Positions 25,781-37,263 of a stretch of 64,000 nucleotides of DNA are shown one piece after another; the stretch's first letter is position 1, and every line of letters starts with the position of its first letter. This stretch comes from Solwaraspora sp. WMMD791 (GTDB lineage: Bacteria > Actinomycetota > Actinomycetes > Mycobacteriales > Micromonosporaceae). The notes below the pieces were generated by a model, which saw only the letters and a list, made by a program, of their open reading frames with translations, had not been told where the DNA came from and did no database searches. The stretch lies in assembly GCF_029581195.1 (NCBI RefSeq), contig NZ_CP120737.1, positions 1,054,001 to 1,118,000 of the forward strand. Reading direction: 5' to 3'. The translations under genes were made by a program, and so were the position numbers.

Positions 25781-27187
25781 ATGGCCGACCCCACCGAGCC
25801 CGCGTCCGTTCCGCCCCCGGCCGCGGCGGCCGGCGCCGCGCCGGCGAGCACCCGCCGGGAACGCACCGGCTGGTACTTCTACGACTGGGCGATGTCGGCG
25901 TTCTCCACGACCGTCATCACCGTGTTCCTGGGTCCGTTCCTGACCAGTGTCACGAAGCAGGCGGCCGGCTGCGCGATCGACGCCGTCGAGTGCACCGGGT
26001 ACGTGTATCCGCTGGGTATCCAGGTGGCGCCGGGGGCGTACTTTCCGTACCTGGTGTCGTTGTCGGTGGCGTTGACGGTGCTGGCGTTGCCGGTGACCGG
26101 GGCGATCGCCGACCGGACGATGCACAAGAAGCGGCTGCTGGCGGCGACGGCGTTCCTCGGCGCGGCGGCGACCATCGCGATGATCTTCGTGACGGGTGAC
26201 CGGTATCTGCTCGGTGGCGGGCTGTTCATCCTGGCCAACGTGACGTTCGGCGCGAGCGTGGTGGTGTACAACTCGTTCCTGCCGCAGCTGGGTGGCCCGG
26301 ACGACCGGGACGGGATCTCCAGCAGGGGCTGGGCGTTGGGGTACCTCGGTGGTGGTCTGCTGCTGGCGGCGAACCTGGTGGTGGTGCAGTCGTTCAGCGT
26401 CGACGGTGATCCGCAGCGCACCCTGGATCTGGCCCGCTGGTCGATCGTGTCGGCCGGGGTGTGGTGGGCGGTGTTCACCCTGGTGCCGCTGGCCTGGCTG
26501 CGGGAACGTCCGGCGTTGGAGGCGCACCCGGGCGGCAACGTGCTCACCGACGGGTTCCGGCAACTGGGGCGTACGGTGCGGGGGCTGAAGGCGTACCCGT
26601 TGACGTTGTTCTTCCTGCTGGCGTTCCTGGTCTACAACGACGGCATTCAGACGGTGATCGCGTTGGCCAGCCAGTACGGCACCGAGGAGCTGCGGCTGGA
26701 CCAGTCGACGCTGATCGTGACGATCCTGCTGGTGCAGTTCCTGGCGTTCGGTGGGGCGTTGGCGTTGGGGGCGGTGGCGAAGCGGATCGGCGCGTGGAAG
26801 ACGGTGCTGGCCAGCCTGGTGCTGTGGACGGCGGTGATCCTGGCGGCGTTCCGGTTGCCGGCGGAGGCGCCGGCGCAGTTCATGGCGCTGGGGGCGGCGA
26901 TCGGCCTGGTGCTGGGCGGCTCGCAGGCGCTGAGCCGGTCGCTGTTCAGCCAGATGATTCCGGCCGGGAAGGAAGGCGAGTACTACGGCTTCTACGAGAT
27001 CAGCGACAAGGGCACCAGCTGGTTGGGGCCGTTGGCGTTCGGTGTGGTGTTCCAGCTGACGAACTCGTACCGGGTGGGTCTGGTGTCGTTGTTGATCTTC
27101 TTTGTGATCGGGTTCCTGCTGCTCGCGGCGGTGCCGGTCCGCCGGGCGATCATCGCCGCCGGCAACACCCCGCCCCGGGTGCTGTGA
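25781..27187 (+). CDS. MFS transporter of the UMF1 (Atg22-like) family
   Basis: A 468-residue protein with about 12 hydrophobic helices. The RRERTGWYFYDWAMSAFSTT start, VVVYNSFLPQLGG and QALSRSLFSQMIP followed by GEYYGFYEISDKG are the hallmark of UMF1-family proteins, homologous to the vacuolar amino-acid exporter Atg22. It probably exports amino acids or another small solute across the cytoplasmic membrane. The ATG follows AGAAGGATCCG. The 25 residues before the first helix are Pro/Ala-rich. It follows GDPD in the same direction. Confidence 0.88.
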   Translation: MADPTEPASVPPPAAAAGAAPASTRRERTGWYFYDWAMSAFSTTVITVFLGPFLTSVTKQAAGCAIDAVECTGYVYPLGIQVAPGAYFPYLVSLSVALTVLALPVTGAIADRTMHKKRLLAATAFLGAAATIAMIFVTGDRYLLGGGLFILANVTFGASVVVYNSFLPQLGGPDDRDGISSRGWALGYLGGGLLLAANLVVVQSFSVDGDPQRTLDLARWSIVSAGVWWAVFTLVPLAWLRERPALEAHPGGNVLTDGFRQLGRTVRGLKAYPLTLFFLLAFLVYNDGIQTVIALASQYGTEELRLDQSTLIVTILLVQFLAFGGALALGAVAKRIGAWKTVLASLVLWTAVILAAFRLPAEAPAQFMALGAAIGLVLGGSQALSRSLFSQMIPAGKEGEYYGFYEISDKGTSWLGPLAFGVVFQLTNSYRVGLVSLLIFFVIGFLLLAAVPVRRAIIAAGNTPPRVL

Positions 27188-28926: not shown

Positions 28927-30144
28927 ATGGACCGGACCTTGGAACGGCAGTGGCTCGACGCGCTCAGCGACGTGCTGACCCGCTCCCACCTGTTCCAGCC
29001 CGACGAACTCGCCCCCGAGTTCGCCGAGGTGATGGCCGGTCTCGGCGTACACACCACGATCTACCTGGCAGACGAGGAGCAGCAGACGCTGCGTCCCGTA
29101 CCGCATCCGGGCCGGACCGACCCCGAACCGCAACCGGTCGAAGGGTCCCTCGCCGGACGGGCCTTCACCCTGGTCGAGTCGATCCCGGCACTGAACGAAC
29201 CGGCCTGGTGGATTCCGATGATCGACGGCACCGACCGGCTCGGCGTCATCGACTTCGTCTTCGACGACCCGGACGACGCCGTCGACCCGCACACCCGACG
29301 CCGCTGCGAAACCATGGCCGGGCTGATCGGCCACCTGATCACCGTGACCGCCCCGAAGGGCGACCACCTGCTGCGGGTCAGCCGGTCCCGGACATCGACC
29401 GCCGCCGCCGAACTGATGGCGCCGGTGCTGCCGCCCCTGACCGCCGCCACCCGCCGGATCACCGTCAGCGCCGTCCTGGAGCCCAGCTACGACATCGGCG
29501 GCGACGGCTTCGACTACGCCATCGACGGGAACCACGCCCAGCTGGCGATCTTCGACGCCGTCGGGCACAGCATGAAAGCCGGCCTGACCTGCAGCGCCGT
29601 GATCGCCGCGATCCGGGCGGCCCGCCGCGCCGGGCACGACCTGCCCGCGCAGGCCGACGCCGCCGACGCCGCCGTGCTGGACCAGTTCACCGACGCCCGG
29701 TTCGTCACCGCGGTCCTGGTCGACATCGACCTGGACAGCGGGCTGCTGCGCTACGTCAACGCCGGACACCCGAGGCCGATGCTGCTGCGCGGCGGCAAAA
29801 TGGTCCGCGAGCTGCGCGACGGCCGCCGGCTGCCGCTGGGCATCCGGCGTACGGTCCGCGCCGTCGGCGAGGAACACCTCGAACCCGGCGACCAGCTGTT
29901 GATGTTCACCGACGGCGTGGTCGAGGCCCGGGGCAGCGACGACGGCGGCGAGTTCGGCCTGAGTCGCCTGGCCGACCTCGCCGAACGCCAGGCCGGCACC
30001 GGGCTGCCGGCACCCGAGGCGGTACGCCGGCTCGCCCGCGCCGTCGCCGACTTCCGGGGCGGCCCGCCCAGTGACGACGCCACCCTGCTGCTGGCCGACT
30101 GGTCCCCGGCCGCCGCCGAACGCACCGTGATCACCCCGCTGTGA
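28927..30144 (+). CDS. SpoIIE-type PP2C serine/threonine phosphatase
   Basis: A 405-residue protein. The N-terminal 150 residues look like a GAF-type sensor (VHTTIYLADEEQQTLRPV, RLGVIDFVFDD). The C-terminal 230 residues are a SpoIIE/RsbU-like phosphatase: PSYDIGGDGFDYAIDG and IFDAVGHSMKAGL supply metal-binding Asp residues, FTDGVVEARG and PPSDDATLLL the rest. Such enzymes dephosphorylate anti-sigma antagonists. Its stop overlaps the GTG of a pentapeptide-repeat gene (GTGA), so they are coupled, which is unusual and ties signalling to that protein. The start ATG at 28927 fits the family. Confidence 0.9.
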   Translation: MDRTLERQWLDALSDVLTRSHLFQPDELAPEFAEVMAGLGVHTTIYLADEEQQTLRPVPHPGRTDPEPQPVEGSLAGRAFTLVESIPALNEPAWWIPMIDGTDRLGVIDFVFDDPDDAVDPHTRRRCETMAGLIGHLITVTAPKGDHLLRVSRSRTSTAAAELMAPVLPPLTAATRRITVSAVLEPSYDIGGDGFDYAIDGNHAQLAIFDAVGHSMKAGLTCSAVIAAIRAARRAGHDLPAQADAADAAVLDQFTDARFVTAVLVDIDLDSGLLRYVNAGHPRPMLLRGGKMVRELRDGRRLPLGIRRTVRAVGEEHLEPGDQLLMFTDGVVEARGSDDGGEFGLSRLADLAERQAGTGLPAPEAVRRLARAVADFRGGPPSDDATLLLADWSPAAAERTVITPL

Positions 30145-31082
30145 CACCGTCGGAGGATCTGCGGGCCAGCGCACTGGACGAGCTGCGGGCCACCGGGCTG
30201 TACGTGCGGGCCGCACGTCAGCTCGGCGCCGACACCGCACCGGTCCGCCTGGCCGGGCTGCACGCCCTGGAACGCCTCGGTCAGGCCGGTGCCGCCGACC
30301 GGCAGCAGGTCACCGACGTGCTCTGCACCTACCTGCAGCTGCCGTTGCCGGCGCAGTGGCCGGACGCCGCACAGGAACGCCGGGTGCGTCTCGCCGCGCA
30401 GCACATCCTCGCCCGGCACCTACGGCCAGGGCCGGCCGAACACGCACCGGATCCGGCATTCTGGGCGGGGGTCGTCGTCGACCTGACCGGGGCCACCGTC
30501 ATCGACGCCGACTTCACCGGCTGTCACCTGCACGACGCCCGGTTCGGCGGGGCGCGTTTCGTCGGCGACGCCCGGTTCGACGAGGCGACCTTCACCGGCA
30601 CCGCCGGGTTCGTCGAGGCCAGCTTCGCCGGTACGGCCGGGTTCGTCGACACCCGGTTCACCGGCCCCGCCGAGTTCGACCGGGCCGTGTTCAGCGGCCC
30701 CGTCGGCTTCGGCGACACGATCTTCGCCGGCACCGCCGGGTTCGCCGGAGCGACATTCGACGGTACGGCCGGCTTCGGTGACACGACGTTCCACGGCATC
30801 GCCCGGTTCACCGGTGCCGTGTTCGCCCGCGACGCCCTGTTCGGCGGGGCGGCGTTCAGCGGCACCGCCCAGTTCGCCGACGTCCGGTTCGGGGTCGACG
30901 CCTGGTTCACCGAGGCCACGTTCGCCGGCATCGCCCGGTTTGCCGGGGCGACGTACGGCAAGGATGCCTGCTTCGACGGGGCGGTCGTCGGCGTCGGCGT
31001 GGGCCGGGACCGCGACGAATGGCCCGCCGGCTGGCACGTCGACCCCGCGACCCGCCACCTGGTACGCGCCCCGCACCACTGA
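30141..31082 (+). CDS. Pentapeptide-repeat protein coupled to the phosphatase
   Basis: A 313-residue protein. Residues 1-100 form a helical module (LYVRAARQLGADTAPVRLAG, then LHALERL and VTDVLCTYLQLP) shared with the next gene. From about residue 115 to 285 runs a right-handed beta-helix of pentapeptide repeats of the F-centred type (GDARFDEATFTGTAGFVEAS and so on), and the end is WPAGWHVDPATRHLV. No membrane segment is present, in contrast to its neighbour. Pentapeptide helices can mimic DNA or act as scaffolds. The GTG start overlaps the phosphatase stop. Confidence 0.87.
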   Translation: MTPSEDLRASALDELRATGLYVRAARQLGADTAPVRLAGLHALERLGQAGAADRQQVTDVLCTYLQLPLPAQWPDAAQERRVRLAAQHILARHLRPGPAEHAPDPAFWAGVVVDLTGATVIDADFTGCHLHDARFGGARFVGDARFDEATFTGTAGFVEASFAGTAGFVDTRFTGPAEFDRAVFSGPVGFGDTIFAGTAGFAGATFDGTAGFGDTTFHGIARFTGAVFARDALFGGAAFSGTAQFADVRFGVDAWFTEATFAGIARFAGATYGKDACFDGAVVGVGVGRDRDEWPAGWHVDPATRHLVRAPHH

Positions 31083-31094
31083 CCACGACCGCTA

Positions 31095-31125
31095 CCGCTG
31101 GCGGTACGGCTCTACTGTGGCTTCC
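31095..31125 (+). promoter_or_regulatory. Candidate promoter, copy 1 of a repeated motif
   Basis: CCGCTGGCGGTACGG and TCTACTGTGG upstream of the membrane pentapeptide gene match the sequence at 32591-32621 at about 27 of 31 positions. TACTGT resembles a -10 hexamer. The conservation of non-coding sequence before two genes suggests a shared control element. Confidence 0.5.
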
Positions 31126-31134
31126 CGACGGCGG

Positions 31135-32508
31135 ATGGTTTCCAGCGGACGGCGGGACACTCGGGTGATCAAGCATTGGAAGGCGGCGACGCCGGCAGCG
31201 GCGGGTGCGGCGGCCCTGCTCGCCGCCGCCGTACTGCTGCTGCCGGGTCGGCTGTGGTCGACGCTGGGTCGGCTGGTCGGCGACCACTGGCCGGCGCTGC
31301 TGCTCGCCGTGGCCGGCGTGACCGGCCTGGTCGTCGGCGGGGTGCTGTGGCGGCGGTCGCGGCCGGCGGTCGAGGCGTCGGCGGCACCCGTACCGCCGCA
31401 GCGTCCACTGCGTCCGTTGCCGACCTGGATGATCGTGGCCGGCGCGCTGGTCGTCGCCGGCATCACCTGGGCCGCGGTGTGGGGTCTGCAGGCCACCGTC
31501 CCGGCCGGTGTCGGAACGCCGCTAGAGCAGGCGCAGCTGCGGGTGGAGACGATCCGCACCGGCTTGTCGGTCGGCGCGGGTGCCGGTGCCGCCGCCGCGC
31601 TGCTGCTGGCGTTACGCCGCCAGCAGGTCACCGAACGGACCCAGCAGGCGACCGAGTACGACGCGGGCGAAAAACGGGTCACCGAGCTGTATGTCAAGGC
31701 CGCCGAACAACTCGGCTCCGACAAGGCACCGGTACGCCTGGCCGGCCTGTACGCCCTGGAACGCCTCGCCCAGGACAACCCGGTGCACCGGCAAAGCATC
31801 GTCGAGGTCATCTGCGCCTACCTGCGCATGCCGTACACGCCACCGGTTGAGGAGCAGGCAGATCGGAGCGCTGCTGAAACCGACACGCAACCTGACCCCC
31901 GGGAGGAACGCCAGGTACGGCTGGCCGCCCAGCGCATCCTCGCCCGCCACCTGCGGCCGACGACGGCGGACCGCAAGCTGAGCCCGACGTACTGGAACGG
32001 AGTTACCGTCGACCTGACCGAGGCGACCCTCCTCGACGCCGACTTCAGTAACTGCCACCTGAACGACGCCCGCTTCGAGGGGGCGTCGTTCACCGGCGAC
32101 GCCAGGTTCTTCTGGGCGAGGTTCACCGGCGACGCCCTGTTTGGCGAGGTGACGTTCACAGGTCGCGCCTGGTTCGCCGCAGCGAGGTTCACCGGCCACG
32201 CCATATTCGCCAGGGCGAGGTTCACCGGCGACGCCAGATTCGACAAGACGACTTTCACCAGCCATGCCTGGTTCGTCGGGGCGACGTTTACTAAAGTCGC
32301 CAGGTTCGCCTGGGCGAGGTTCGCCGGCCGTGCCGCGTTCAGCGAGGCGACCCTTGTTAGCGGGGTGGATTTCAACGGCGCTCGTGTCGACGGCGGCATC
32401 GATGACTATAGTGTTTGGCCAGCGGGGTGGCAGGTCGATCCGGAGACGCGGCGAGTGGTGCGCATACCTCCAGAGGAGAAGCCGGGAGGGGACGCGGAGC
32501 CGAAGTAA
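31135..32508 (+). CDS. Membrane-anchored pentapeptide-repeat protein
   Basis: About 457 residues from ATG 31135 (or 447 from GTG 31165, which starts VIKHWKAATPAAAG). Three hydrophobic helices fill the first 160 residues (GAAALLAAAVLLLPG, PALLLAVAGVTGLVVGGVLW, MIVAGALVVAGITWAAVWGL). A helical module follows that is shared with the previous gene (LYVKAAEQLGSDKAPVRLAG), then F-centred pentapeptide repeats from about residue 320, ending WPAGWQVDPETRRVV. The architecture places a beta-helix on the cytoplasmic side of the membrane. Its own promoter-like motif precedes it. Confidence 0.87.
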   Translation: MVSSGRRDTRVIKHWKAATPAAAGAAALLAAAVLLLPGRLWSTLGRLVGDHWPALLLAVAGVTGLVVGGVLWRRSRPAVEASAAPVPPQRPLRPLPTWMIVAGALVVAGITWAAVWGLQATVPAGVGTPLEQAQLRVETIRTGLSVGAGAGAAAALLLALRRQQVTERTQQATEYDAGEKRVTELYVKAAEQLGSDKAPVRLAGLYALERLAQDNPVHRQSIVEVICAYLRMPYTPPVEEQADRSAAETDTQPDPREERQVRLAAQRILARHLRPTTADRKLSPTYWNGVTVDLTEATLLDADFSNCHLNDARFEGASFTGDARFFWARFTGDALFGEVTFTGRAWFAAARFTGHAIFARARFTGDARFDKTTFTSHAWFVGATFTKVARFAWARFAGRAAFSEATLVSGVDFNGARVDGGIDDYSVWPAGWQVDPETRRVVRIPPEEKPGGDAEPK

Positions 32509-32590
32509 AGGCGGCTACCGTCACCCTGCGGGCAATCCAGCGCACCCGCAGACGCCCGGTTGTAACGGATCCGACAGCGCGGCGGTCTGA

Positions 32591-32621
32591 CCGCTGGCGA
32601 TACGGGTCTACTGTGGTTGCC
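32591..32621 (+). promoter_or_regulatory. Candidate promoter, copy 2 of a repeated motif
   Basis: CCGCTGGCGATACGGG and TCTACTGTGG, nearly the same as 31095-31125, upstream of the small adaptor-like gene. With TACTGT (32609-32614) as -10, transcription would begin about 25 bases before the ATG at 32647. Confidence 0.5.
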
Positions 32622-32646
32622 ACCTCGGACGGACGGAGTGGCGGGC

Positions 32647-33072
32647 ATGGTGGACATCGACCCGATCGCGGCCGCGACCGGTGCCGCGTTGATCCAGGCG
32701 ATCGCGACCGACGCGTGGGAGAAGGCCCGCGACGGGGCGGTCGCGCTGTGGCGGCGGGTACGCCCACAGCAGGCCGACGCCGTCGCCGCCGAGCTGGTCG
32801 AGGTACGCGACGAGGTCCTGATCGCTCGCCGCGACGGTGACACCGACACCGAGCAGGGCCTGGTCGACGATTGGCAGCGCAAGCTGCAGCGGCTGATCCG
32901 CCAGGATCCGGCGTTCGCCGCCGAGCTGCGTAGCCTCCTCGACGACACCCTCACTCCCCTGCTGCCGCCCGCCGACCAGCAGCAGGTCGGCAGCATCACG
33001 ATGACCGCCACCGCCAGGGACAGCGGCTGCGTCTACCAGGCCGGCCGTGACCAGCACATCACCGAGCGGTGA
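32647..33072 (+). CDS. Small adaptor-like protein upstream of the TPR NTPase
   Basis: A 141-residue protein with an alanine-rich helical N-terminus (DPIAAATGAALIQAIATDAW EKARDGAVALW, written in two parts), a charged helical middle (DDWQRKLQRLIRQDPAFAAE) and a C-terminal beta-type tail CVYQAGRDQHITER. Proteins of this kind occur widely in actinobacteria as partners of STAND or effector proteins. The tail matches VIQAAGDQHITIY at the start of the next protein. GGAG lies 8 bases before the ATG. The stop overlaps the next start (GTGA). Function is not known; an adaptor role is inferred. Confidence 0.7.
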   Translation: MVDIDPIAAATGAALIQAIATDAWEKARDGAVALWRRVRPQQADAVAAELVEVRDEVLIARRDGDTDTEQGLVDDWQRKLQRLIRQDPAFAAELRSLLDDTLTPLLPPADQQQVGSITMTATARDSGCVYQAGRDQHITER

Positions 33073-35675
33073 CGCGACCCGACACCCACTTGCACGGCGA
33101 GGCTAGCGGCCACGGGCAGGTGATCCAGGCCGCCGGTGACCAGCACATCACCATCTACAAGCAGCGGGCGGCCTACCGGGTGGAGCGGTGGCAGCCGCCA
33201 CGGCCACCGGACCCGCGTACGTTGGTCGACCAGCCGAGCATGTTGCTCGCCGCCAACAACCAGGTGGTGCCGTTCACCGCCCTGCGCGACGCCGACCGCG
33301 CCGAGCTGGCCGCCTGGCGGGACGACCCGGCGCGCGGGGTGGCGGTACGGCTGCTGCACGGGCCGGGCGGGCAGGGCAAGACCCGGCTCGCGGCCCAGTT
33401 CGGCGCGGACAGCATCGCCGCCGGCTGGGCGGTCGCGGTCGCCCGGCACCGTAGCCAACTCGCCGCCGACGACCCGCCCGAGGCCACCGAGGCAACCGGG
33501 CGTGGCCTGATGGTGATCGTCGACTACGCCGAACGCTGGCCCGCCGAAGATCTGCGAGACCTGCTCAAGGACCGGCTACTGCGCCAGGGTGTGCCGACCC
33601 GGCTGCTGCTACTCGCCCGCCCAGAGTCGACCCTGTGGCCGCATCAGCACGATCTGACGACCCTCGGGTACGCGGCCGACGTCACCGCGCTGACCCCAGC
33701 CGCCGACAGCCCCGCGAACCGACAGCGGATCTTCGCCGAGGCCGCCGACCGGTTCGCCTTCGCGTACGGCATCGACGGCGGCTCGATCCAGCCGCCCGCC
33801 GACCTGGCCACCGGGGAGGCGTACCGGCAGATCCTGGTGATCCACATGGCGGCGCTGGTCGCGGTCGACGCCGCCGCGCGCCAGCGGACCGCACCGACCG
33901 GCGATCGGGACCTGTCGGCCTACCTGCTGCGCCGCGAGGTCGACCACTGGCACAAGCTGCACGAACAGCGGGCCAGCTTCGTCACGACCCCGCAGGTGCT
34001 GAGCCGTACGGTGTGCACGGCGACGTTGACCCGGCCGCTCGACTACGACGACGGCCTGGCCGCGTTAACGGTGGCCGGGGTGTGCGCACCGGACGCCACC
34101 GACCAGGTCCTGACCGACCATGCAGTCGGCTACCCGCCGGCTGAGCCAGACAAGGTGCTGGAGCCGCTGTATCCGGACCGGCTCGGCGAGGACTTCATCG
34201 CGCTTCGGCTGCCCGGGCACGGGGTGGCCGGTTCCCCTACCGATCCGTGGGCCGGTGGGGCGATCGCCAGGCTCATCACCGGCATCGGCCCTGATGGCGT
34301 TGGTCAGCCGCCTTGGTCCGCATCAGCGTTGACGGTATTGGTCGAGACCGCGATCCGCTGGCCGCACGTCGCGTCCCGGGTTCTCTCCCCGCTGCTGCGT
34401 CAGCGCCCCGAGTTGGCGGTCGCCGCTGGCGGCACCGTCCTGACCCGGATCGCCGACGTCGACGCACTCGACATTGCCGTGCTGGAAGCAATCGAGCCGC
34501 ATCTGCCGCAAGGTCTGCATGTCGGCCTGGCCATCGCCAAGGCCGGCATCACCAAGCGACTCACATCGCATCGGCTGACCACCGCAGATGAACCGACGCG
34601 GGCGAGGTTGCTTGGCACCCTCGGTAATCGGTTGTCGGAGGCGGGTCGGCGCGACGAAGCCCTCACCGCCACCACCGAAGCCGTCACGATCCGCCGCCGG
34701 CTCGCCCAAGTGAACCCCGCCGCCTACGAACCCGACCTCGCCGGATCGCTGAACAACCTCGGCATCCGACTGTCGGACCTCGGCCGGCGTGACGAAGCCC
34801 TCACCGCCACCACCGAAGCCGCCGACATCTACCGCCGGCTCGCCCAAGTGAACCCCGCCGCCTACGAACCCGACCTCGCCGGATCGCTGAACAACCTCTC
34901 CGTCGACCTGTCGAACCTGGGCCGGCGTGACGAAGCCCTCACCGCCACCACCGAAGCCGCCGACATCTACCGCCGGCTCGCCGCAGTCAACCCCGCCGCC
35001 TACGAACCCGACCTCGCCACGGCGCTGAACAACCTCGGCATGATGCTGTCGAACCTGGGCCGGCGCGACGAAGCCCTCACCGCCACCACCGAAGCCGCCG
35101 ACATCCGCCGCCGGCTCGCCACGGTCAACCCCGCCGCCTACGAACCCAACCTCGCCACGTCGCTGAACAACCTCGGCATCTGGCTGTCGGACCTGGGCCG
35201 ACGCGACGAAGCCCTCACCGCCACCGTCGAAGCCGTCACCATCCGCCGCCGGCTCGCCACGGTCAACCCCGCCGCCTACGAACCCGACCTCGCCACGTCG
35301 CTGAACAACCTCGGCATGATGCTGTCGGACCTGGGCCGACGCGACGAGGCCCTCACCGCCACCGTCGAAGCCGTCACCATCCGCCGCCGGCTCGCCCAAG
35401 TGAACCCCGCCGCCTACGAACCCGACCTCGCCAAATCGCTCTGGACCGAAGCCTGGGTGCGGGCAGCCCACCAATACGAGCTGCCCGAGGCGCTGACCGC
35501 CGCGACCGAGTCAGTCGAGCGTTACGAGAAGCTGTTCCAGCAAATCCCGATGGCGTACGTACGTGATCTTGCCGGGGCGCTGGGAACCATGGCGGACGTC
35601 CTCGACGGGCTCGGTCGGGGCGAGGAGGCGGCTGCGGTCAGGGCTCGCTGGGACGCGCTGACAGGAGAGCAGTAG
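33069..35675 (+). CDS. STAND-like P-loop NTPase with near-identical TPR repeats
   Basis: An 868-residue protein. Residues 10-30 hold the GDQHITIY element, GPGGQGKT at about 98-105 is Walker A and GLMVIVDYAE at about 146-155 Walker B, with LLLLARPE as a sensor strand. A helical region reaches about residue 510. Six 46-residue TPR units follow (518-793), each reading LGRRDEALTAT.EA..I.RRLA..NPAAYEP.LA.SLNN, and then a degenerate seventh. Such STAND-TPR proteins are signal-sensing switches, several of them anti-phage. The GTG overlaps the upstream stop. Its end overlaps the convergent gene by 38 bases. No effector domain is visible. Confidence 0.87.
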   Translation: MTRPDTHLHGEASGHGQVIQAAGDQHITIYKQRAAYRVERWQPPRPPDPRTLVDQPSMLLAANNQVVPFTALRDADRAELAAWRDDPARGVAVRLLHGPGGQGKTRLAAQFGADSIAAGWAVAVARHRSQLAADDPPEATEATGRGLMVIVDYAERWPAEDLRDLLKDRLLRQGVPTRLLLLARPESTLWPHQHDLTTLGYAADVTALTPAADSPANRQRIFAEAADRFAFAYGIDGGSIQPPADLATGEAYRQILVIHMAALVAVDAAARQRTAPTGDRDLSAYLLRREVDHWHKLHEQRASFVTTPQVLSRTVCTATLTRPLDYDDGLAALTVAGVCAPDATDQVLTDHAVGYPPAEPDKVLEPLYPDRLGEDFIALRLPGHGVAGSPTDPWAGGAIARLITGIGPDGVGQPPWSASALTVLVETAIRWPHVASRVLSPLLRQRPELAVAAGGTVLTRIADVDALDIAVLEAIEPHLPQGLHVGLAIAKAGITKRLTSHRLTTADEPTRARLLGTLGNRLSEAGRRDEALTATTEAVTIRRRLAQVNPAAYEPDLAGSLNNLGIRLSDLGRRDEALTATTEAADIYRRLAQVNPAAYEPDLAGSLNNLSVDLSNLGRRDEALTATTEAADIYRRLAAVNPAAYEPDLATALNNLGMMLSNLGRRDEALTATTEAADIRRRLATVNPAAYEPNLATSLNNLGIWLSDLGRRDEALTATVEAVTIRRRLATVNPAAYEPDLATSLNNLGMMLSDLGRRDEALTATVEAVTIRRRLAQVNPAAYEPDLAKSLWTEAWVRAAHQYELPEALTAATESVERYEKLFQQIPMAYVRDLAGALGTMADVLDGLGRGEEAAAVRARWDALTGEQ
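34620..35447 (+). repeat. Six tandem 138-bp TPR-encoding units
   Basis: Units begin at 34620, 34758, 34896, 35034, 35172 and 35310, each exactly 138 bp (46 codons). They are nearly identical in DNA, with long shared tracts such as GACGAAGCCCTCACCGCCAC. Differences cluster at a few codons (DI/TI, Y/R, AQ/AA/AT, G/D/M). This is what unequal recombination within the gene would give. Confidence 0.9.
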
Positions 35676-35919
35676 CTTCGGCGGTGAGGATCTGGTCGGG
35701 CCACTGCAGAAACCGGCGGTACAGGTCTGGCGGGCTGAGCTGCTCGGCGTCGCATTCCAGCAGGTCGTCGATCGCCTCGTACATGAGGGTGGCGAGGTAG
35801 ACGCACATCCCGATCCGGTCGTTGGCCCAGTCGGCGGTGATCTCGATCTTCGCGGATTCGCACGGCCATTCCGTACCGCACTCGCGGCAATTCCAGTGCG
35901 GGCGAGACGCGATGTGCAT
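35638..35919 (-). CDS. Small Cys-containing protein, actinobacterial family
   Basis: A 93-residue protein starting MHIASRPHWNCRECGTEWPC; the two CxxC-like pairs suggest a small zinc site. The rest is helical (MCVYLATLMYEAIDDLLECD and FLQWPDQIL). I recall similar proteins, often mislabelled flavin reductase, next to XRE/DUF397 genes in actinomycetes. Its ATG shares a base with the stop of the upstream gene (TGATG), so the two are translationally coupled. The true function is unknown. Its last 38 bases overlap the end of the TPR NTPase gene. Confidence 0.7.
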   Translation of the reverse strand: MHIASRPHWNCRECGTEWPCESAKIEITADWANDRIGMCVYLATLMYEAIDDLLECDAEQLSPPDLYRRFLQWPDQILTAEATALLSARPSEP

Positions 35920-36224
35920 CAGTGTGCCCCGTTCACTCGGGCGCGCTGTCCGCGCGTCAACAGGCCGGCGACCCACACGTACGCGGTGGGGTGGTTCCAT
36001 CGGGGGCCGCGATCCCACTGCGGCGACTGGTTCGACGGCCGATCCGTCGGCTTCGGGCGCGGTGCCGGCGTGTTGTGCAGGTACGGCGCGATGGTCGACG
36101 GCAGGTACCTGTCGGGGCAGGGCCAGCGTATTCCGCAGCGGCAGTACCGGCCGAGTCGCCGCCAGTTGCGGGCGTGTCGCGGCTCGAACCGTATCCGATC
36201 GTCGCGTGTGGACCTCAATCGCAT
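35919..36224 (-). CDS. Small Arg/Pro-rich hypothetical protein
   Basis: A 101-residue basic protein. WRRLGRYCRCGIRWPCPDRY contains a CxC...C arrangement like small zinc-binding proteins of actinomycetes, and the C-terminal part is Pro/Arg/Trp-rich (NQSPQWDRGPRWNHP). The ATG follows AAGAAGGG. It is translated with the next gene (TGATG overlap) and divergent from the XRE regulator, 151 bases away. I do not recognise a named family. Confidence 0.6.
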   Translation of the reverse strand: MRLRSTRDDRIRFEPRHARNWRRLGRYCRCGIRWPCPDRYLPSTIAPYLHNTPAPRPKPTDRPSNQSPQWDRGPRWNHPTAYVWVAGLLTRGQRARVNGAH

Positions 36225-36375
36225 TTGTCAACCCTTCTTGCAACACATTTTCCATGATCACTGAACTCTTCCTTCACATCATGCTTATTCGCCATCTGGC
36301 TCAGCGCAATCTCGCACCGGTAGGTTCGGACCCAACATCCACCCACCATTACGCGACACGAGAGGACGGGGTTTC

Positions 36376-37263
36376 GTGGACGACGCCGGCAGCACTGTCC
36401 CGCGCAGGCAACTGGGTCGATATCTGAGAGAGCTTCGCGAAGACGCACATGTCACGGTCGCCGCAGCGGCCAAGGCACTCGAATGGTCGCCGCCGCGCAT
36501 CTGGCGCTACGAGGGCGGCCAGGTGCCGATCCACCCGAACGACGCCGAGGCGATGTGCCGGCTCTACGGCGCGCCCCCGGAAACGATCACGACGATGCGC
36601 AATTTGGCCCGCGAGACCAAGTCACGCGGCTGGTACCACGCCTACGACCACGCCATCACAGAATGGTTCAAGCTGTACGTCGGCCTCGAAGCCGCCGCTT
36701 CGACGATCCGCAAGTACGAGCCGAATGTCATCCCCGGTCTGCTCCAGTCCCTGGAGTACATGACGGAGATCATCACCACCGGAAACCCCGACCTGAGCCA
36801 GGCCCAGCAGCAGGCACGCATCGAAGTGCGGTCCAAGCGGCAGAAGCTGCTCGCCCGCGTCGTCCCACAGGCCCCCGACCTCGACGTGGTGATCGGCGAG
36901 GCAGCCCTTCGCTGTCCGACGAAGGATCGGGCCGCGATGGCGCGCCAACTGCGGCACCTCGCCGCCGTCGCCACCCAACGCCACAACGTGACCGTCCGGG
37001 TTCTCACCTTCGCCGCCGGACTTCCCAGCAGGCCAGAGGTCGGGTCGTTCTCCATTCTGACCTTCCCCAAGGTCAGCGTCCGCCCGCCCGAGCCGACCAC
37101 CGTCTACTCTGACGGCCCGTGTGGTGCCATCTACCTCGACAAACCCACCGAGATCGAGACCTATGAGGGCATCTGGTCGTCACTCAAGCAACACTGCCTC
37201 ACCCCGCTAGAATCGACCGAGTTCATCACCCGGATCGCCAAGGAGTACGACGATGAAGGCTGA
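36376..37263 (+). CDS. XRE family regulator with DUF5753 domain
   Basis: A 295-residue protein. An N-terminal helix-turn-helix (LGRYLRELREDAHVTVAAAA to SPPRIWRYEGG) is followed by the DUF5753 domain (YEPNVIPGLLQSLEYMTEII, then VVIGEAALRC and FSILTFP). Such proteins pair with DUF397 proteins in Streptomyces and Micromonospora (the WhiJ-like and SCO-type systems) and affect development or act like toxin-antitoxin modules. The GTG at 36376 follows AGAGGACGGGG. It overlaps the DUF397 gene by 11 bases. The promoter region upstream is unusually AT-rich for this genome. Confidence 0.93.
   Translation: MDDAGSTVPRRQLGRYLRELREDAHVTVAAAAKALEWSPPRIWRYEGGQVPIHPNDAEAMCRLYGAPPETITTMRNLARETKSRGWYHAYDHAITEWFKLYVGLEAAASTIRKYEPNVIPGLLQSLEYMTEIITTGNPDLSQAQQQARIEVRSKRQKLLARVVPQAPDLDVVIGEAALRCPTKDRAAMARQLRHLAAVATQRHNVTVRVLTFAAGLPSRPEVGSFSILTFPKVSVRPPEPTTVYSDGPCGAIYLDKPTEIETYEGIWSSLKQHCLTPLESTEFITRIAKEYDDEG

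What the first reader, a model, noticed from the sequence alone, without database searches (positions are those of the whole stretch)
28927..35675. A candidate regulated conflict or signalling island: phosphatase, two pentapeptide proteins, adaptor, TPR NTPase
Five same-strand genes lie together. Two GTGA overlaps join the phosphatase to the first pentapeptide protein and the adaptor to the NTPase. The second pentapeptide protein carries the same helical module as the first, but with a membrane anchor. STAND-type NTPases with TPRs are established sensors in bacterial conflict systems; a SpoIIE phosphatase and paired soluble/membrane pentapeptide beta-helices as their companions are not something I know as a described system. 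The link between the two halves is inferred from position and from a shared promoter motif.
Basis: partly seen in the sequence, partly recalled or inferred. Interest (0 to 1): 0.72.

Follow-up and report, generated by a model that had tools for sequence, protein, structure and literature searches.

The report
Amyloid-type immune pair beside pentapeptide operon
Two of the five genes look like a bacterial immune receptor and its partner that recognise each other through a matching short amyloid-like tag, and the other three appear to be separate neighbours, one of which shares a promoter with the pair.

Summary
The five genes, both GTGA overlaps, the repeated helical module and the shared promoter motif are real, but the full set occurs in only 1 of 7 genomes of the genus (own included). 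The "adaptor" (32647-33072) and the TPR NTPase (33069-35675) form a separable pair with a shared motif: adaptor C-terminus GCVYQAGRDQHIT, NTPase N-terminus GQVIQAAGDQHIT. A profile from 41 tails of more distant adaptors hits only these two of 928 six-frame window stretches. At 54 loci of named actinobacteria, 34 of 47 called next genes carry the motif near the N-terminus (0 of 187 internal slices); 20 of 28 scanned are STAND/AAA-type NTPases. Own pairs match better than swapped ones (0 of 10,000 permutations). This is the layout of published NLR-associated amyloid signalling (BASS) pairs. SpoIIE and PPR2 are neighbours in 7 of 7 genus genomes, two of which lack the pair; outside the genus their relatives were never within 20 kb (0 of 17 genomes listing both). 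The real link is local: one promoter element precedes PPR2 (7/7) and the adaptor (5/5), with no other copy in the genome at up to 3 mismatches.

The parts
28927..30144 (+). SpoIIE/PP2C-type phosphatase (N-terminal part without a Pfam match; GAF-like is a guess from recall); genus-conserved neighbour, not part of the core pair
   Evidence: PF07228 E 1.2e-45; next to PPR2, or to PPR1 then PPR2, in 7 of 7 genomes of the genus
30141..31082 (+). PPR1, soluble pentapeptide-repeat protein; separate gene in 2 of 7 genomes of the genus
   Evidence: PF13576 E 3.5e-32
31096..31120 (+). promoter-like element, copy 1, upstream of PPR2 (-10-like TACTGT)
   Evidence: found upstream of PPR2 in 7 of 7 genomes of the genus
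31165..32508 (+). PPR2, membrane-anchored pentapeptide-repeat protein (start GTG 31165 most likely; ATG 31135 possible)
   Evidence: PF13576 E 1.6e-23; hydrophobic N-terminal segments; start context conserved
32592..32616 (+). promoter-like element, copy 2, upstream of the adaptor
   Evidence: upstream of the adaptor in 5 of 5 genomes of the genus that have it
32647..33072 (+). 'Adaptor': helical-bundle partner/effector with C-terminal amyloid-like motif
   Evidence: AlphaFold2 mean pLDDT 84.1, helices between 6 and 115, low-confidence tail strands 128-132 and 135-139; relatives at 54 loci
32995..33069 (+). C-terminal signalling motif of the adaptor (core GCVYQAGRDQHIT)
   Evidence: motif HMM E 1.7e-14
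33069..35675 (+). STAND (NLR-type) NTPase with TPR array; receptor of the pair
   Evidence: GTGA overlap with the adaptor
33102..33152 (+). N-terminal signalling motif of the NTPase (ASGHGQVIQAAGDQHIT)
   Evidence: motif HMM E 5.4e-7 for its stretch
34643..35440 (+). array of near-identical 138-base (46-residue) TPR units, 5.8 copies, 91% matches
   Evidence: unit number differs among genomes of the genus by a simple pattern count

Best explanation
The functional core is a two-gene NLR-type signalling pair. The STAND-TPR NTPase is the sensor: its variable TPR array would recognise an invader or stress cue, and NTP-driven oligomerisation would bring together its N-terminal motif (GQVIQAAGDQHIT). 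The clustered motif would template, by amyloid-type beta-arch stacking, the matching C-terminal motif of the adaptor (GCVYQAGRDQHIT). That would polymerise the adaptor's helical domain and switch on its effector action, probably a membrane-directed or growth-arresting output. Shown here by sequence: the pair, its translational overlap, the shared motif, pair-wise matching of motif variants, partner diversity, and separability from SpoIIE and the pentapeptide genes. Inferred: oligomerisation, amyloid nature, effector output and a role in defence. The SpoIIE-PPR genes are genus-conserved neighbours. In this genus the pair has the same local promoter element as PPR2, so the two are probably co-regulated rather than parts of one machine.
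For: A motif HMM from 41 of 54 adaptor tails of named loci (adaptors at most 61% identical to the window's) hits only the adaptor tail (E 1.7e-14) and the NTPase N-terminus (E 5.4e-7) among 928 window stretches at E <= 1. An own-genome motif search at E <= 0.1 gives 6 hits, all in neighbouring genes; its alignment contains the window's two motifs, so those two are hits by construction. A second adaptor-NTPase pair in the same genome carries its own variant, VYQQGSGIQYN/VFQQGDGFQYN (E 0.036 and 0.015); local scores are 42 and 72 within pairs, 28 and 17 across. At 54 loci in named actinobacteria, 31 next genes start one base before the adaptor's stop codon, an NTGA-type overlap. 34 of 47 called partners have the N-terminal motif at E <= 0.01; the best of 187 internal slices had E 0.45. 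Over 30 non-redundant pairs the own-pair score is 53.0 against 43.0 for non-own, 0 of 10,000 permutations reach it. 20 of 28 partners scanned have a STAND/AAA-type NTPase match at E <= 0.001. AlphaFold2 gives a helical bundle and a low-confidence strand-turn-strand tail. The layout matches the published description (passages of PMC7889193).
Against: Amyloid formation is untested. The motif profile did not report the published BASS3 peptide, and the BASS1-10 profiles were not available. By simple local alignment the window's own pair scores 42: above the shuffle mean (23.3, sd 4.9) but below the best internal control (47) and the best shuffle (55); 11 of 30 pairs do not exceed all internal controls and one (L130) scores 19. 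The adaptor has no clear transmembrane helix (19-residue mean at most 1.34), although Bell effectors are described as having one. Its two models have no PDB match. 13 of 47 called partners lack the motif by this profile. Three adaptor relatives of one genus lack the tail and an NTPase partner (L042, L043, L046), and no motif-bearing partner was called for some others such as L041, L048 and L049. No defence phenotype is known and there is no credible PADLOC match.
Confidence: 0.7

Rival explanations
1. A homotypic docking peptide rather than an amyloid: the two motifs pair as short beta-strands and bring one adaptor to each NTPase protomer, without self-templating polymerisation.
For: The sequence evidence shows shared, matched motifs but not polymerisation. 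The tail is short and partly charged, and the published BASS3 peptide is not reported by the profile.
Against: Shared receptor/effector motifs at exactly these termini are the published mark of amyloid signalling pairs (passages). Q and G in the core and a predicted, low-confidence strand-turn-strand fit a beta-arch.
Confidence: 0.2
2. A single regulated island: the phosphatase and pentapeptide proteins are components or regulators of the adaptor-NTPase system.
For: SpoIIE, PPR2, adaptor and NTPase keep strand and order in 5 of 7 genomes of the genus, own included. A promoter-like element with no other copy in the genome at up to 3 mismatches is conserved upstream of both PPR2 and the adaptor; in G002 both copies share the same base changes.
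Against: The pair is absent while SpoIIE-PPR2 stays in 2 of 7 genomes, and all five genes together occur in 1 of 7. Outside the genus there is no co-location among listed matches (0 of 17, 0 of 9 and 0 of 4 genomes for SpoIIE-PPR2, SpoIIE-adaptor and PPR2-adaptor). The whole neighbourhood, with unrelated genes, is syntenic in the genus, so position alone says little.
Confidence: 0.12
3. A developmental or stress switch rather than defence: the NTPase-adaptor pair controls differentiation or programmed death during normal growth.
For: Found mostly in Streptomyces and related actinobacteria (record titles), which differentiate; SpoIIE-type phosphatases often act in such switches (both recalled).
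Against: Patchy presence (adaptor matched in 22 of 151 genomes), several receptor types paired with one adaptor family, and TPR unit numbers that differ between genomes of the genus (6, 11 and 2 in three by pattern count) fit conflict systems better.
Confidence: 0.2

Closest known systems
NLR-associated bacterial amyloid signalling pairs (BASS motifs with Bell effectors; Dyrka et al. 2020, not held, known from passages of PMC7889193, PMC12261475, PMC8086366 and PMC7885112)
   Same: Adjacent or overlapping genes; shared short motif at the NLR N-terminus and the C-terminus of a small helical partner; actinobacteria.
   Different: Assignment to any of BASS1-10 not tested; no clear transmembrane helix in the partner; here placed under a promoter element shared with a pentapeptide gene.
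RHIM/PP/BASS3 motif family (published peptide VDLRDAKGVQVGDGNVQINRF)
   Same: By eye: hydrophobic-Q-small-G core followed by a second short strand.
   Different: Spacing and core differ (VYQAGRD against VQVGDGN); our profile does not report it.
STAND/EAD conflict systems of multicellular prokaryotes (Kaur et al., PMC7159879, PMC8195603; passages read)
   Same: STAND NTPase switches, homotypic adaptor logic, variable repeats; pentapeptide repeats listed among superstructure-forming domains.
   Different: No EAD, Death-like or TRADD-N match (whether those libraries hold such models was not checked); SpoIIE has 0 occurrences in either main text.

Membership tests
NLR-associated bacterial amyloid signalling pair (BASS type) | Two adjacent or overlapping genes, NLR and partner | tested here: met
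   GTGA overlap; NTGA-type overlap at 31 of 54 related loci
NLR-associated bacterial amyloid signalling pair (BASS type) | Same short motif at the NLR N-terminus and partner C-terminus | tested here: met
   window pair alone scores 42 by local alignment, below the best control of 47, but is found by the profile
NLR-associated bacterial amyloid signalling pair (BASS type) | NLR architecture: STAND-type NTPase plus superstructure-forming repeats | tested here: met
   TPRs and Walker A; nSTAND_NTPase5 31.0 bits, just under its cut-off of 34
NLR-associated bacterial amyloid signalling pair (BASS type) | Motif belongs to one of BASS1-10 | not testable with these tools
   profiles not held; one published BASS3 peptide not reported by our profile
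NLR-associated bacterial amyloid signalling pair (BASS type) | Motif forms self-templating amyloid | not testable with these tools
   only a predicted strand-turn-strand at low confidence
Bell effector domain | Small alpha-helical bundle | tested here: met
   six helices between residues 6 and 115; 92 of 141 residues at pLDDT 90 or more
Bell effector domain | Hydrophobic transmembrane helix | tested here: inconclusive
   best 19-residue hydropathy mean 1.34, below the 1.6 threshold; no dedicated predictor used
Bell effector domain | Sequence match to Bell profiles | not testable with these tools
   no match in the libraries scanned; no Bell profile known to be among them
Five-gene SpoIIE-pentapeptide-STAND island | Conserved co-occurrence and order of the five genes | tested here: not met

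The most novel reading that the evidence does not exclude
In this genus an amyloid-type NLR pair has been captured into a regulatory circuit with a membrane pentapeptide beta-helix protein and a SpoIIE phosphatase. One promoter element, with no other copy in the genome, switches on the membrane protein and the effector-receptor pair together, so that the membrane pentapeptide protein acts as the docking site or brake of the amyloid-activated effector.
Probability: 0.1. Interest if true: 0.75.

Novelty: new member of a known kind. Interest (0 to 1): 0.45.

Why it matters
It turns an 'adaptor' family without a Pfam, NCBIfam or PADLOC name, seen here at 54 loci of actinobacteria, into a testable effector class, and gives two motif pairs within one genome (window and 2.72 Mb) with which specificity and cross-talk of bacterial amyloid signalling could be measured directly. 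It also shows that the apparent five-gene island should not be treated as a new conserved system.

Tried and rejected
Five-gene system: rejected as a conserved unit. Chance origin of the shared promoter motif: rejected (0.00 expected in the window, 2 found; the same 2 in the whole genome). Known defence system: the only PADLOC match was PtuA on the TPRs at E 0.089. Herpes_UL49_2 match of the adaptor at E 0.013, 16.1 bits against a cut-off of 25: taken as chance. Fold search of the adaptor: two models, best E 2.0 and 2.5; sequence search of solved structures: best E 0.12. Sigma-70 consensus scan reported nothing at the shared element. Gain or loss of the pair in G003/G006: right-hand homology resumes at window 35628, inside the NTPase 3' end, but this stretch also encodes the end of the opposite-strand ORF, so the two cannot be told apart. 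Concerted evolution of the promoter copies: suggestive in G002 only; within-genome distances 3, 5, 4, 5, 6 against a mean of 5.9 between genomes, so not claimed.

Rows dropped before counts: 15 of the 54 loci (no called partner, partner under 340 aa, or starting more than 60 bases away) were left out; adaptors about 75% or more identical were then reduced to one, from 40 pairs to 30 (29 loci and the window). 7 of 54 loci had no called partner. 13 of 54 tails did not fit the anchor pattern used for the HMM. The tails and the partners come from the same loci, so that count tests the partner side only. Pfam was run on 28 of the 50 partner ORFs listed. One search uses only matches listed (E <= 1e-3; 1e-40; 1e-30; 1e-20), which score a limited number of candidates per genome; contig breaks can hide neighbours. 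The NTPase query was its first 510 residues; PPR1 was not searched on its own.
Full report
Observation. Family matches are SpoIIE (PF07228), pentapeptide repeats twice (PF13576), no credible family for the adaptor, and TPRs with a sub-threshold nSTAND_NTPase5 match for the NTPase, which has a Walker A motif. PPR1 and PPR2 are 45.5% identical over 312 columns, and only PPR2 of the five has strongly hydrophobic segments. The shared 25-base element occurs twice in the 6.93 Mb genome with up to 3 mismatches, at window 31096 and 32592.

Are the five genes one unit? I searched 151 genomes (the own one and 150 relatives) with the adaptor, SpoIIE, PPR2 and the first 510 residues of the NTPase. All seven genomes of the genus, own included, have SpoIIE and PPR2 side by side or with PPR1 between. 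PPR1 as a separate gene occurs in two of seven (own genome and G006). Adaptor and NTPase occur in five of seven. So all five genes together occur in one of seven. In G003 and G006 PPR2 is followed directly by the opposite-strand ORF (window 35641-36261) and the XRE/DUF5753 gene, without the pair. The surrounding genes (MFS, poly-gamma-glutamate hydrolase-like, HTH) are syntenic in the genus, so position within the genus is weak evidence of function. Outside the genus, using the matches listed in those four calls, SpoIIE and PPR2 lie within 20 kb in 0 of 17 genomes that list both, SpoIIE and adaptor in 0 of 9, PPR2 and adaptor in 0 of 4, PPR2 and NTPase in 0 of 6, SpoIIE and NTPase in 1 of 12 (19.7 kb), but adaptor and NTPase in 4 of 7, at 0.5-1.6 kb. 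Many of these genomes are in several contigs and the lists are capped, so these are not exhaustive.

What is the adaptor? Its last 25 residues (ITMTATARDSGCVYQAGRDQHITER) resemble residues 12-28 of the NTPase (ASGHGQVIQAAGDQHIT). I fetched 54 loci with relatives of the adaptor, at most 61% identical, from named actinobacteria: mostly Streptomyces, also Micromonospora, Nonomuraea, Actinomadura, Streptosporangium and others. At 31 of 54 the next called gene starts one base before the adaptor's stop codon, as in the window. A profile from 41 of these 54 tails reported two of 928 six-frame stretches of the window at E <= 1: the adaptor tail (E 1.7e-14) and the NTPase N-terminus (E 5.4e-7). The same profile hit the first 150 residues of 34 of 47 called partner proteins at E <= 0.01; among 187 internal 150-residue slices of those proteins the best E was 0.45. 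Tails and partners come from the same loci, so this count tests the partner side only.

Pairs match as pairs. For 30 non-redundant pairs (of 40 eligible) the mean local score of tail against own partner N-terminus was 53.0, against other partners 43.0, against shuffled N-termini 23.3 (sd 4.9, highest 55); no permutation of 10,000 reached the observed mean. 19 of 30 own scores exceeded every internal control (highest 47). The window pair itself scores 42 and so is not among the 19; L130 scores 19. In the window's own genome a motif search at E <= 0.1 gave six matches, all in neighbouring genes: the window pair (in the query alignment, hence by construction); two tandem paralogues at 904.5 and 905.5 kb, both with the motif near the N-terminus (E 4.8e-7 and 4.8e-6); and a second adaptor with its own NTPase-like neighbour at 2.72 Mb (E 0.036 and 0.015); 150 of 267 first-look candidates were scored. 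The last pair uses a different variant (VYQQGSGIQYN and VFQQGDGFQYN). Scores within pairs are 42 and 72, across pairs 28 and 17, which suggests insulated channels.

Partners are NLR-like. Of 28 partner proteins scanned (of 50 listed), 20 had a STAND- or AAA-type NTPase match at E <= 0.001: nSTAND1 with WD40, NB-ARC with TPR, nSTAND_NTPase5 with TPR, NACHT, AAA_16; some of these are below Pfam's cut-offs. Eight had none: one TPR only (L133), one MgtE_N (L139), six without any match, of which three (L113, L118, L125) start 125-417 bases from the adaptor and may be miscalled. The window NTPase has a recent-looking TPR array, 138-base units, 5.8 copies at 91% matches. A simple pattern count gives 6 units in the own genome, 11 in G001 and 2 in G005; the pattern finds none in G002, and in G004 the frame stops at residue 119.

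Structure. AlphaFold2 with 59 sequences gave mean pLDDT 84.1: helices between residues 6 and 115, confident to about residue 105, and two strands, 128-132 and 135-139, at low confidence in the motif. Foldseek's best PDB matches had E 2.0 and 2.5 for the two models, and a profile search of PDB sequences none better than E 0.12.

Promoter. The element was found upstream of PPR2 in 7 of 7 genomes of the genus and upstream of the adaptor in 5 of 5 that have it, with 0 to 4 mismatches. In the other loci held then (L036 to L152), at up to 5 substitutions, it was found only in further fetches of the same genus loci and as one 5-mismatch site in L110, 2.9 kb past the adaptor. The 12 aligned copies all keep TCTACTGTG, a plausible -10 region, with a mostly conserved CTGGCGGTACGG before it. 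A sigma-70 consensus scan does not report it. This suggests that the pair and PPR2 are expressed together in this genus; it does not make them one machine.

Comparison. [quoted passage not shown] PMC12261475, PMC7889193, passages). The founding paper (Dyrka et al. 2020) was not held. The layout is therefore known; this pair is a new member by architecture. Whether the motif is one of BASS1-10 was not testable, one BASS3 peptide was not reported by our profile, and the adaptor has no clear transmembrane helix, so I do not call it a Bell protein. For a described SpoIIE-pentapeptide-STAND system I ran one search (154 papers with at least 3 of 5 terms, 12 listed and seen as listing only) and looked for SpoIIE in two conflict-system papers (0 occurrences); I saw none, and this covers only the open-access library.

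Verdict. A likely member of a little-tested immune class, sitting beside a genus-specific phosphatase-pentapeptide cluster with which it shares a promoter element.

Noticed in passing
G000:C1:904471-905547 (L159:6331-8736): Two tandem paralogous genes carry the same motif near the N-terminus (GQGQVFQAGRDIVISG) before helical-looking repeat regions that resemble, by eye, the MgtE_N-type partner at L139; the adaptor search listed no adaptor there.
   Followed up: partly
G000:C1:2723965-2724108 (L160): Second adaptor-NTPase pair in the same genome with its own motif variant; a natural specificity control.
   Followed up: partly
L042, L043, L046 (three genomes of one related genus): Adaptor relatives without the C-terminal motif sit between a gene related (64-65% identity) to the window's MFS gene at 25781 and a small P-loop protein that looks like a thymidine kinase (recalled, not scanned), with no NTPase partner called.
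   Followed up: partly
34643-35440: TPR units are near-identical and their number differs among genomes of the genus (6, 11 and 2 in three by pattern count), suggesting fast-changing recognition; in G004 the NTPase frame is interrupted early.
   Followed up: partly
35641-36261 (-): Opposite-strand ORF, matched at least in part in all seven genomes of the genus, overlaps the NTPase 3' end tail to tail; no Pfam, NCBIfam or PADLOC match.
   Followed up: no
36376-37263: XRE/DUF5753 regulator beside the locus in all seven genomes of the genus; candidate binder of the shared promoter element.
   Followed up: no
L037/L038, L040: In G002 SpoIIE, and in G005 PPR2, match in two reading-frame pieces (frameshift or sequencing error); G002 also holds a second copy of the locus with the same match scores on a small contig.
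   Followed up: no
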